A stretch of DNA of 64,000 nt, from the NCBI GenBank assembly GCA_016462645.1, contig JAEMSX010000001.1, forward strand, positions 127,999-191,998, in the 5' to 3' direction. The notes beneath the pieces were generated by a model, which saw nothing but the letters and a program-made list of their open reading frames with translations, made no database searches and was not told where the DNA came from. The translations under genes were made by a program, and so were the position numbers. Below, piece after piece: positions 12,620-16,594 of the stretch. Within the stretch, counting starts at the first letter, position 1. Each line of letters opens with the position of its first letter. This stretch comes from Thermoleophilaceae bacterium (GTDB lineage Bacteria; Actinomycetota; Thermoleophilia; Solirubrobacterales; JACPNS01).

Positions 12620-14815
12620 ATGAATTCCTCCGCATCTCCGCAGTCCTCACGTCGCGTAGACCCTTGGCTCGTCGCGATCGTGCTGGTTTCTGCGGCCGCC
12701 GGCGCGCTGACCGTGGCGCGGGCGCGCAACTGGGGCCTGATGACCGACGAACTGCTCTACACGGGCATGGCGCGGTCGATCGCCCACTCGGTCATCCCGT
12801 TGCCGCAGGTACGCGGCGAGTCGGTCCCGGTCAACCAGGTGCTCTTCCCGACGCTGATCGCGCCGATCGTCGGGTCGATCTCGATGCCGGCCGCGTATCC
12901 CGTGATCGCCGCACTGAACGCGATCGTCATCGCCACCGCCGCGATCCCCGTCTACCTCCTCACCAACTTCGTGACCGCCAACCGCACGGCCGCGCGCTGG
13001 GTCGCCGCCTGCACAGTGGCGACGCCGTGGATCGCATTCGCCTCCAAGGCCATCCCCGACCCGCTCGCCTACGTCGCGGTGCTCTGGACCGCCTACGCGA
13101 TGGTCCGAACCGCCGCCAGCAGGCCAAAACCGCTCAAGGGCGATCTGCTCGTGCTCCTGGCGATCGCGCTCAGTTACCTCGCGCGCAACCAGTTCATTCT
13201 GCTCGTCGGTGTCTGGGTCGGCGTGGTCGTGTTCTCGCGCGTCGCGGAAACGCTCGCCGAGCTCTCCTGGCGCGACCTCCCCAAGCGACTGCTCGCCCTG
13301 CTCAAGGACCGCCCGCTTCCGTTCGTCACCTTCGTCGTCGTGATCCTGGTCGTGAAGCTCCAGCCAAGCTGGCTGCTCGGGATCTACACCGTCACCACCG
13401 ACGGCACCCGCGGCGGCTCGGCGCCGAGCGGAATCGTCCACGCCTTCTTCAACCACGCCAGCATCGTCGCGCTCGGCGTGGCCGGTCTTCCGCTGATCCT
13501 CGGCCTCCCGTGGCTCGTCGTCGCGCTCGCCCGCGTGAAGGACCGGGTGCAGAACGACGCGGCAGTCGTGATCCTGCTGCTCTCCTGCGCGGTCCTCTAC
13601 GTCGGCGCGAGCTTCGATCTGCGCTTCGCGCCGTCCGATCAGGTGATCGAGCGCTATGTCTTCTACATCGCGCCGCTGCTGCTGGTCGCGATGGCCGCGT
13701 TCTTCAGCAAGCCGCCCAAGAGCGCAGTCGCTTTCCTGGTGCCCGCGATTGCCGGGCTGCTGTTGCTCAACGTCAGCCAGCCCTACGGACTCGACTCGCC
13801 GCTCGGCTTCGTCGTCAACTCCGGCATCGCCCCCACACAGATCACGTTCGTCGCCTGGCAGAACGTCGCGGACGCGATCGGCACATCGATCTTCGGGATC
13901 GTCGCCGTGCTGATGATCGTGTTGGCGGGCGCGGTGTGGTGGCTGCTCGGCTCGGGCCACGAGTCGATCGCGCGTAACGGGTCGTTCGCGCTGCTGCTGG
14001 TCGTGTTGCTCGCGTCGTCGGCCTACACGGTGCCGAAGATCGTCGACACTCAGAACGACGCGGTCGATTCCGCGTTCGGAGATCGCAGCAACGACGAGAA
14101 GGCCTGGTTGGACCGGCTCGTCGGCGACTCGACCGCATCGCTTGTCTTCACGCGACGCGTCGACGTGAACGAGCAGTCGGGGAGCGAGTCCAGATCGGCC
14201 GCCCCCAACCCGGGAGCTTCCGAGCGCGCAATCGATCTCGCCTTCTGGAACGGTTCGATCAGCGCGGTCTACGTGCCCGTCGGGGGCAACCCTCGCGCCT
14301 ACTCACCGCTCCCCGGCGCGGCCTGGACGATGAAGCCCGACTGGGAGACGGGTGCGCTCAACCGCCGGCCCGAGGACAAGTCACGCGTTCTCGCACAGGC
14401 CGAATCCAATCCGTTCTTCGCGCCTCAGCACGCCGGCGAGCCGGCCTTGGACTCCGGCTATCTCGTCTACGCCACCGGCGCGAAGGCGACCGCCGCCTGG
14501 GCAACCAGGGGCCTGACCCTGAACGGCTGGGTGCCGCCGGAAGGTGCGACGCTGCGCGTCTGGGCGCCGAGGGACGCGACCGGGACCTCGGCGGTGGCGA
14601 TCGATCTCTGGATCGCAACGAACGGTCGGTCGGCGGGGCTCGATGGATTCAAGGTCGCCGGCGCGCAGGACCTCAAGACCGTTCGCGAAGGCGATCAGGC
14701 CCGTTACGCGTGGGACGCCAGGATCCCCGCGGGCGGGCACGTCGACTTCAGGCTGATCCCCGGGGCCGGCAGCGCCCACGTGGAGAAGATCAGCGGTAGG
14801 TCCCCTCCGGGTTAG
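12620..14815 (+). CDS. Large membrane protein, glycosyltransferase 39/GT-C-like
   Basis: 731 aa, many TM segments then soluble C-terminal domain. Confidence 0.6.
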   Translation: MNSSASPQSSRRVDPWLVAIVLVSAAAGALTVARARNWGLMTDELLYTGMARSIAHSVIPLPQVRGESVPVNQVLFPTLIAPIVGSISMPAAYPVIAALNAIVIATAAIPVYLLTNFVTANRTAARWVAACTVATPWIAFASKAIPDPLAYVAVLWTAYAMVRTAASRPKPLKGDLLVLLAIALSYLARNQFILLVGVWVGVVVFSRVAETLAELSWRDLPKRLLALLKDRPLPFVTFVVVILVVKLQPSWLLGIYTVTTDGTRGGSAPSGIVHAFFNHASIVALGVAGLPLILGLPWLVVALARVKDRVQNDAAVVILLLSCAVLYVGASFDLRFAPSDQVIERYVFYIAPLLLVAMAAFFSKPPKSAVAFLVPAIAGLLLLNVSQPYGLDSPLGFVVNSGIAPTQITFVAWQNVADAIGTSIFGIVAVLMIVLAGAVWWLLGSGHESIARNGSFALLLVVLLASSAYTVPKIVDTQNDAVDSAFGDRSNDEKAWLDRLVGDSTASLVFTRRVDVNEQSGSESRSAAPNPGASERAIDLAFWNGSISAVYVPVGGNPRAYSPLPGAAWTMKPDWETGALNRRPEDKSRVLAQAESNPFFAPQHAGEPALDSGYLVYATGAKATAAWATRGLTLNGWVPPEGATLRVWAPRDATGTSAVAIDLWIATNGRSAGLDGFKVAGAQDLKTVREGDQARYAWDARIPAGGHVDFRLIPGAGSAHVEKISGRSPPG

Positions 14816-15740
14816 CCATGAAAACACCGCTCACGTTCACGCGTCCGGCGTGTGAGCATCCGCTCGCGCCCATCTTCAGCTGCTCATCCGACGGCGGGTT
14901 CAGCACCATCAGCTCCGGCAGCGTGACCATCGTCAGACCGCTCTTGCGGATCGCCGGGATGATCTTGCGCTTCAGGGCCTCGATCGTCGCGGTCGGGCCG
15001 TCGTGGAAGAGGATGTTCGCGCCAGGTCCGAGCCCGTCGATTGCGTTCTTCGCGATCGTCTGCCAGGGCTTCGCCAGACCATCCTGGGAGTCGGCGCTCC
15101 AGAGCATCTCGGCGTATCCGAGTTTGCGCGTCGTGTTCTCGGTGGCAGGATTGCGCGCGCCGTAGGGCGGGCGCATGAACATGTTGTCCTGGTCGACCTG
15201 AGTCTTGAAGACTTCCTGCGTGTCGTTGAGCTGAGCCTTCAGGTCGGACGTGCTGAGCGTCGTGTAGTCCGAGTGGTCCCAGGAGTGGTTGCCGATCGGG
15301 CCGTATGCGGCGTGCAGCTTGAGTCCGGGGACATCAGCCTGGGCGTTCTTGCCGAGATCGAAGAACGTCGCGGGGATGCCCTCCTCCTTGAGCAGCTTGA
15401 CCAGCTGGGGCGTCGTGGCCGAGGGGCCGTCGTCAAAGCTGAGCGCGGCGTACTTCTTCGTTCCGGCGCAGAAGACCGGCAGCTTCGACTTGACGATGCG
15501 CTTCATGGCGGCCTTCTGCTCGCTCGGCGAGATGTAGATCGCCTCAGAGTTGGCGATATCCAGCGCCATTGCGGTGGGAACGGTCGAAACCTCGATCAGT
15601 GGCCGTTCGACATCTGTGTGCGCCGAAGACGTCGCCATCGCGAAAACCATCGAAAGCAGCACAAAACCCCCGCAAACCAGCACCGCTAAGCGGAGTTTGG
15701 GGTTGGGCCTACGACGTTTGTCCATCTTCCTTGCAGCCAC
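14790..15740 (-). CDS. Polysaccharide deacetylase (NodB homology)
   Basis: ALSFDDGPSATTPQLVKLL, GNHSWDHSDY, MRPPYGARN. Confidence 0.9.
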   Translation of the reverse strand: MAARKMDKRRRPNPKLRLAVLVCGGFVLLSMVFAMATSSAHTDVERPLIEVSTVPTAMALDIANSEAIYISPSEQKAAMKRIVKSKLPVFCAGTKKYAALSFDDGPSATTPQLVKLLKEEGIPATFFDLGKNAQADVPGLKLHAAYGPIGNHSWDHSDYTTLSTSDLKAQLNDTQEVFKTQVDQDNMFMRPPYGARNPATENTTRKLGYAEMLWSADSQDGLAKPWQTIAKNAIDGLGPGANILFHDGPTATIEALKRKIIPAIRKSGLTMVTLPELMVLNPPSDEQLKMGASGCSHAGRVNVSGVFMANPEGTYR

Positions 15741-15880
15741 GCAACATCGATCCTACGTTGATCTTGACCGAGATTAGGGCAACGATCCCAGGCACATGCC
15801 GACAGGGAGTATGCATCCTGATCAAGGTCAGACATCCTGATCGGATGTATCGCGAACTTCTAGCCCCCGTTCTCTGAGCT

Positions 15881-16152
15881 GCTCGGGAGCTGGAACGCCA
15901 GTCCCGACTGCGGAGGCCGGGACAGGCGGGAAGAGCCCACCCAGGTGGGCTCTTTCTCGTTAAGGGACGATCGGGAGCTGGGCTGCGCCGGATCCCCGAC
16001 TGCGGAGGCCGGGACAGGCGGGAAGAGCCCACCCAGGTGGGCTCTTTCTCGTTAAGGGACGATCGGGAGCTGGGCTGCGCCGGATCCCCGACTGCGGAGG
16101 CCGGGACAGGCGGGAAGAGCCCACCCAGGTGGGCTCTTTCTCGTTAAGGGAC
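15881..16152 (+). repeat. Three tandem ~92 bp repeats, each ending in GAGCCCACC-CA-GGTGGGCTCTTTCTCG hairpin
   Basis: Copy 1 15881-15968 (5' part diverged, 4 nt shorter); copies 2 (15969-16060) and 3 (16061-16152) identical. Confidence 0.95.
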
Positions 16153-16171: not shown

Positions 16172-16594
16172 CTAGCCCTCGACCGGCACCACGCGGGGCT
16201 GACCCTCGCGGTGGCTTCCGTCACGACCGACGTAACCGCCCGCAGACCCGAAGACGATGTACGTCGCCTCGGTATCCCCGACATTCGCCACACTGCGCTG
16301 CGTCGCGGCTTCAACACGGATCACTCCGCCAGGTCCAAGCGTGACCGACTCCTCGTCGTTCTCGCCCATCGTGAAGCGCAGCGTGCCTTCATGCACGAAA
16401 TAGACCTCTTCCTGACGCTCATGCCAGTGCGCACCGGTTCCGACCTTCGCCGGAAGCACGATCGCGTTCACGCCCATCTCGGTCACGCCGAGCTCCGTGC
16501 GCACCTTGCGAAAGCCCGGACCTTCGCCCATGCCGTCGAGATTGCCGGCCTTCCAGCCCTTGCCCTCGGTCACTTCAACCTGAAGATCGCTCAT
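16172..16594 (-). CDS. Cupin domain protein
   Basis: 140 aa, GTGAHWHERQEEVYFVHEGTLRFTMG. Confidence 0.85.
   Translation of the reverse strand: MSDLQVEVTEGKGWKAGNLDGMGEGPGFRKVRTELGVTEMGVNAIVLPAKVGTGAHWHERQEEVYFVHEGTLRFTMGENDEESVTLGPGGVIRVEAATQRSVANVGDTEATYIVFGSAGGYVGRDGSHREGQPRVVPVEG

What the first reader, a model, noticed from the sequence alone, without database searches (positions are those of the whole stretch)
15881..16152. Three tandem ~92 bp units, each a two/three-hairpin cassette ending in a terminator-like stem: possible tandem small-RNA array
Copies 2 and 3 are identical over 92 bp; copy 1 shares the 3' ~64 bp but differs in the 5' part. Each unit contains GTCCCG/CCCCG-actgcggaggc-CGGGA(C) (loop exposes GCGGAGG) and GAGCCCACC-CA-GGTGGGCTCTTTCTCG. 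The divergent 5' hairpin keeps pairing: CTGG-aacg-CCAG in copy 1, CTGG-gctgcg-CCGG (one G.U) in copies 2-3, which looks like structural conservation. No convincing ORF covers the units and they sit in a 430 bp gap between two minus-strand genes. The exposed GGAGG loops suggest, speculatively, an RNA that binds an anti-SD or a GGA-binding protein. I do not recognise a known RNA family.
Basis: partly seen in the sequence, partly recalled or inferred. Interest (0 to 1): 0.65.

Follow-up and report, generated by a model that had tools for sequence, protein, structure and literature searches.

The report
Duplicated genus-specific small-RNA gene
This stretch holds a conserved, folded, probably regulatory small-RNA gene found in all five available members of one uncultured bacterial genus; it has been copied in tandem in this genome and its nearest relative, and its target is still unknown.

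Summary
The repeat is real: three head-to-tail copies, 92-nt period, copies 2 and 3 identical. Comparison changes the anatomy. A syntenic homologue exists in all four other genomes of the genus (order Solirubrobacterales): one copy in three, two in the closest, three here. The ancestral unit is ~110 nt (15853-15962), longer than described. It forms three hairpins: H1 (15858-15895), H2 with an invariant loop ACUGCGGAGGC, and terminator-like H3. 96.5% of pair cells are standard and seven pairs covary; no shuffle matched the cell counts. Copies 2-3 lack the 5' arm of H1 and the conserved upstream block, yet copy 2 is identical in two species whose flank differs by 12%. There is no Rfam match and no convincing homologue in 227 other genomes of the order or in a class sample. 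The element persists where the neighbouring deacetylase is missing (G001), so it is not that gene's leader. GGA motifs are not enriched and no ANGGA occurs, so a CsrA sponge is not supported, although the genus has CsrA and no detectable FliW. Best reading: a new trans-acting sRNA family with a lineage-specific tandem duplication. Transcription and targets are untested.

The parts
15842..15853 (+). Invariant upstream block CGGATGNATCGC (promoter element or operator; alternatively start of a 10-codon ORF)
   Evidence: Identical but for one base in all five genomes, just upstream of H1; sequence further upstream is only 37% invariant against 73% here. No sigma-70 consensus match.
15853..15962 (+). 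Ancestral sRNA unit (copy 1), ~110 nt, three hairpins
   Evidence: Covariance model R1 127.8 bits; homologues at the same place in all five genomes of the genus; 1 difference in 110 nt against G003 while the flank has 14 in 113.
15858..15895 (+). Hairpin H1: UUCYRG..CCCG / CGGG..CYGGAA with near-invariant loop UUCUCUGAGCUGCU (one substitution, in G004)
   Evidence: 11 pairs, 96.4% of cells paired, one pair changed on both sides, wobble changes at another.
15897..15927 (+). Hairpin H2: GCCAGUCCCG / CGGGACAGGC with invariant loop ACUGCGGAGGC (15907-15917)
   Evidence: 10 pairs, four with compensatory changes (CG/AU, GC/UA, CG/UA, CG/UA); loop invariant in all five genomes and all copies.
15928..15958 (+). 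Hairpin H3: terminator-like stem followed by UUUCUCGUU
   Evidence: 13 pairs, 100% of cells paired, two with compensatory changes (GC/CG, GC/AU). The tail is a modest T tract: the consensus terminator scan did not flag it.
15971..16054 (+). Copy 2: H2 and H3 kept, 5' arm of H1 missing, new segment GGCTGCGCCGGATC
   Evidence: 51.7 bits with R1; 84/84 identical to copy 2 of G003.
16063..16146 (+). Copy 3, identical to copy 2
   Evidence: 100% over 92 nt; 51.7 bits; absent from G003.
14790..15740 (-). Neighbour: polysaccharide deacetylase, divergent from the sRNA unit
   Evidence: Pfam PF01522, 101.8 bits. Absent at the locus in G001, shortened in G003.
16172..16594 (-). Neighbour: cupin-domain protein, convergent with the sRNA unit
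   Evidence: Pfam PF07883, 44.3 bits. Present beside the element in all genomes viewed, 345 nt away in G002.

Best explanation
The locus is a small-RNA gene on the + strand. An RNA of about 110 nt starts near 15853, folds into H1-H2-H3 and ends at H3. It most likely acts in trans: the conserved loops of H1 (CUCUGAGCUGCU) and H2 (ACUGCGGAGGC) would seed pairing with mRNAs, while H3 gives stability and termination. In the ancestor of G000 and G003 the 3' part (end of H1 to H3) was duplicated in tandem, and once more in G000. Copies 2-3 lack the conserved upstream block, so they would be transcribed by read-through of the modest terminator of copy 1, giving a longer RNA with two or three H2 loops, as PrrH arises from prrF1-prrF2. 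Shown: repeat, homology, synteny, covariation, constraint. Inferred: transcription, strand, trans action, pairing, read-through.
For: Homologue in 5/5 genomes of the genus at the same place. Structure: 96.5% of cells paired, 7 pairs and 11 cells with changes on both sides, 0/500 shuffles reach the cell measures; slid partners give 37-57%. Consensus fold z = -8.6 against column shuffles. Single-sequence z = -3.2 to -6.6 for copy-1-type units. Constraint: 1 change in 194 element positions against 14 in 113 flank positions, G000 to G003, Fisher p = 5e-6. Retained where the deacetylase is missing. + strand: T tract after H3, conserved block just upstream of H1, and a near-constant distance from the divergent gene while the distance to the cupin varies.
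Against: No expression data. No recognisable sigma-70 promoter. The reverse strand also folds well (consensus -57.6 against -61.5 kcal/mol) and H2 has A.C cells that would be G.U on the - strand. Exact 12-mers complementary to the H2 loop region recur elsewhere in only three genomes, in unrelated genes, and no ortholog-conserved target was found. Only five genomes support the covariation.
Confidence: 0.6

Rival explanations
1. It is a protein-titrating RNA: H2 loops (GCGGAGG) bind a GGA-recognising protein such as CsrA, and tandem copies raise the number of sites. This would replace FliW, which the genus seems to lack.
For: CsrA in 5/5 genomes of the genus (86.5 bits in G000) and FliW in 0/5. 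The H2 loop with GGA is invariant; copy number rises in one lineage.
Against: GGA count 4-6 per unit against 3.2-3.8 in shuffles (P 0.12-0.42), no ANGGA motif, one loop-exposed GGA per unit. Many other genomes of the order have CsrA without FliW and lack this RNA.
Confidence: 0.1
2. It is a cis element on the - strand: the 3' UTR of the cupin mRNA, or the 5' leader of the deacetylase mRNA, with H2 exposing a C-rich loop (CUCCGCA).
For: H2 pairs slightly better on the - strand; both flanking genes are on the - strand here.
Against: In G001 the deacetylase is replaced by an epimerase on the other strand, yet the element stays. In G002 it lies 345 nt from the cupin. No T tract after the last - strand hairpin.
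Confidence: 0.17
3. It is only a bidirectional terminator between convergent transcripts that has been duplicated, with no regulatory RNA.
For: H3 is nearly symmetrical and lies at the end of the cupin gene; duplicated terminators are unremarkable.
Against: H1 and H2 are as conserved as H3, with long conserved loops that a terminator does not need, and H2 covaries.
Confidence: 0.13

Closest known systems
Tandem sibling sRNAs OmrA/OmrB and PrrF1/PrrF2 (with PrrH)
   Same: Adjacent duplicated sRNAs of similar length; OmrA/OmrB share their ends and differ inside; PrrH arises by read-through of the first terminator (PMC4211561).
   Different: No sequence relation (no Rfam match). Here copies 2-3 seem to lack their own promoter. 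Hfq was not looked for.
NsiR1 array of Nostoc
   Same: sRNA in a tandem array with identical central copies and divergent peripheral copies (PMC9045159).
   Different: NsiR1 is ~60 nt, 12 copies, each with its own promoter, the outermost antisense to the hetF 5' UTR. Here 110/84 nt, three copies, no promoter found for copies 2-3.
LhrC1-5 of Listeria
   Same: Multicopy sRNA with a repeated single-stranded motif in its loops (PMC4132741).
   Different: LhrC exposes UCCC that pairs with Shine-Dalgarno sequences; here the + strand loop exposes GGAGG, which cannot do so.
CsrB/RsmX/RsmZ CsrA-sponge RNAs
   Same: GGA in a hairpin loop; multicopy.
   Different: No ANGGA, no GGA enrichment, one exposed GGA per unit.

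Membership tests
Intergenic structured bacterial sRNA gene | Conserved secondary structure with compensatory changes among homologues | tested here: met
   7 covarying pairs in 34; 0/500 shuffles reach the cell counts
Intergenic structured bacterial sRNA gene | No protein-coding constraint | tested here: met
   A 10-codon ATG..TGA frame over H1 is open in all five genomes, but its changes show no third-position bias (2 of 8 variable positions); no longer frame is shared
Intergenic structured bacterial sRNA gene | Own promoter and intrinsic terminator | tested here: inconclusive
   H3 plus T-rich tail present but not flagged; conserved upstream block without sigma-70 consensus
Intergenic structured bacterial sRNA gene | Discrete transcript | not testable with these tools
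   No RNA data available
Tandem sibling sRNAs | Adjacent homologous copies derived by duplication | tested here: met
   1, 2 and 3 copies in related genomes at one place
Known Rfam families | Match above gathering score | tested here: not met
   None in the window; only weak matches far below gathering score to unrelated families; none in homologues at E<=0.1
CsrA-sponge sRNA | Multiple ANGGA motifs in loops | tested here: not met
   0 ANGGA; GGA at shuffled expectation
CsrA-sponge sRNA | CsrA present in the genome | tested here: met
   PF02599 86.5 bits
cis-regulatory leader of the deacetylase | Always upstream of and co-directional with the regulated gene | tested here: not met
   Deacetylase absent from the locus in G001, element present

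The most novel reading that the evidence does not exclude
A new RNA family that controls CsrA, or another global RNA-binding protein, in actinobacteria that have CsrA but no FliW, with dosage raised by tandem duplication of the binding hairpin: an sRNA-type CsrA antagonist outside the Proteobacteria.
Probability: 0.07. Interest if true: 0.75.

Novelty: new member of a known kind. Interest (0 to 1): 0.42.

Why it matters
A text search for 'Solirubrobacterales' with 'small RNA' in the open-access library found no study of sRNAs in this order. The locus gives a well-bounded candidate with covariation support. It also catches a tandem sRNA duplication in progress (1, 2 and 3 copies in sister species), which allows a direct test of how sibling sRNAs arise and whether promoterless copies are expressed by read-through.

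Tried and rejected
Known RNA family: none. Mobile or dispersed repeat: one locus per genome. Plasmid carriage: no match. Leader peptide or attenuator: a 10-codon frame (M[NHY]R[EI]L[LP][AE]P[VG]L) runs from CGGATG to the TGA in the H1 loop in all five genomes, but there is no third-position bias, no Shine-Dalgarno sequence and no co-directional downstream gene to attenuate. CsrA sponge: motif test negative. Targets by exact complement: H1 complement with one mismatch is at background (counts like the reversed control); H2 complement outside the locus falls in a DNA methyltransferase-like gene, an unrelated protein and the first codons of dnaE in one genome each (gene names read from the translations, not tested). 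More distant homologues: six hits of 24.7-32.8 bits in other families of the order; the four displayed do not keep the invariant H2 loop, and the other two (26.5 and 24.7 bits, L028 and L032) were not displayed.

Full report
Observation. The window holds three head-to-tail units at 15881-16152 with a 92-nt period; the second and third are identical and the first differs in its 5' part. The array occurs once in the genome. The window is C20:127999-191998 of a 2.65-Mb, 82%-complete assembly of 149 contigs. Named matches for three relatives are MAGs titled Actinomycetota (two, groundwater) and uncultured Solirubrobacterales (one).

Homologues. A nucleotide search of 60 relatives found strong matches in all four other genomes of the genus and nothing convincing elsewhere. 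All lie beside the same cupin gene. G001, G002 and G004 have one copy, G003 two, G000 three. The single-copy form is therefore most simply ancestral and the array a lineage-specific expansion. Conservation starts at CGGATGNATCGC, 28-39 nt 5' of the reported start, so the real unit is about 15853-15962.

Structure. An alignment of the five single units gives three hairpins. In a pair count on the named structure, 96.5% of cells are standard pairs, 7 of 34 pairs change on both sides, and no shuffle of 500 reaches the observed cell counts; partners slid by one to three columns fall to 37-57%. H2 has four covarying pairs around the invariant loop ACUGCGGAGGC, H3 two, H1 one plus wobble changes. 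The consensus energy is -61.5 kcal/mol against -30.0 +/- 3.6 for column shuffles. With five related sequences these counts are supportive rather than overwhelming.

Constraint. Between G000 and G003 the copy-1 unit has 1 difference in 110, copy 2 has 0 in 84, and the intergenic flank has 14 in 113 (Fisher p = 5e-6). Copy 2 is thus also conserved, or homogenised, although it lacks the 5' arm of H1 and the upstream block. Its private segment GGCTGCGCCGGAT is identical in both species too, which gene conversion from copy 1 would not explain.

Strand and context. The T tract follows H3 on the + strand (UUUCUCGUU, CUUCUCUUU in homologues). The conserved block sits immediately 5' of H1, and the distance to the divergent deacetylase is steady while the cupin moves up to 345 nt away. 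In G001 the deacetylase is missing from the locus and an epimerase-like gene on the opposite strand ends 165 nt from the element; in G003 the deacetylase is shortened. A leader of the deacetylase is therefore excluded for G001. The - strand folds almost as well, and A.C cells in H2 would be G.U there, so the strand is probable, not proven.

Family and distribution. No Rfam family reaches threshold in the window, and none comes up in homologues at E <= 0.1. The covariance model finds the element in 5/5 genomes of the genus, weak hits (24.7-32.8 bits) in six other genomes of the order, the four displayed of which do not keep the invariant H2 loop, and nothing in the other genera of a 399-genome class sample at E <= 0.001.

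Mechanism. Two long conserved loops on a stable scaffold with a terminator fit a trans-acting base-pairing sRNA. Exact-complement searches gave no conserved target, but such searches are crude. The GGA-protein idea was tested: the genus has CsrA (5/5) and no detectable FliW (0/5), as do many genomes of the order (198/232 with CsrA, 75/232 with FliW), but motif content does not support a sponge. In the literature FliW and BarA-UvrY-driven sRNAs are described as alternative CsrA controls (PMC4682653), so FliW-less CsrA genomes in this order remain an open point.

Comparison. The nearest kinds are tandem sibling sRNAs: OmrA/OmrB and PrrF1/PrrF2 with the read-through product PrrH (PMC4211561), NsiR1 (PMC9045159) and LhrC (PMC4132741). 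No sequence relation was found. The unusual point here is that the extra copies are 5'-truncated and seem promoterless.

Verdict. A real, new, narrowly distributed sRNA candidate of a known kind, with a duplication in progress; moderate interest until expression and a target are known.

Noticed in passing
G000:C78:49361-49516 (L021) and order-wide search: CsrA is widespread in this order (198 of 232 genomes) while FliW is found in 75; the genus of the window has CsrA 5/5 and FliW 0/5. What antagonises CsrA in the FliW-less genomes is open.
   Followed up: partly
window 15845-15877: A 10-codon frame ATG..TGA (M[NHY]R[EI]L[LP][AE]P[VG]L) starts in the conserved upstream block and stops in the H1 loop in all five genomes; no third-position bias, but start and stop are kept.
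   Followed up: yes
window 15745-15790: Block CATNNNTCCTACGTTGATCNTGAC near the deacetylase start is conserved in most homologues and kept in G001 where the deacetylase is absent; it may belong to the sRNA's control region.
   Followed up: partly
L085:1495-1512 (G002 dnaE start): Codons 3-6 of a dnaE-like gene in G002 are exactly complementary (12 nt) to the H2 loop region; not checked in the other genomes.
   Followed up: no
L004/L036 (G001) and L002 (G003): The deacetylase next to the element is missing from the locus in G001 (epimerase-like gene in its place) and seems to lack about 30 internal residues and its C-terminus in G003.
   Followed up: partly
window 15832-15846: CATCCTGATCGGATG: inverted repeat CATCC-N5-GGATG in G000 and G003 just upstream of the unit, operator-like; left arm not kept in the other genomes.
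   Followed up: no
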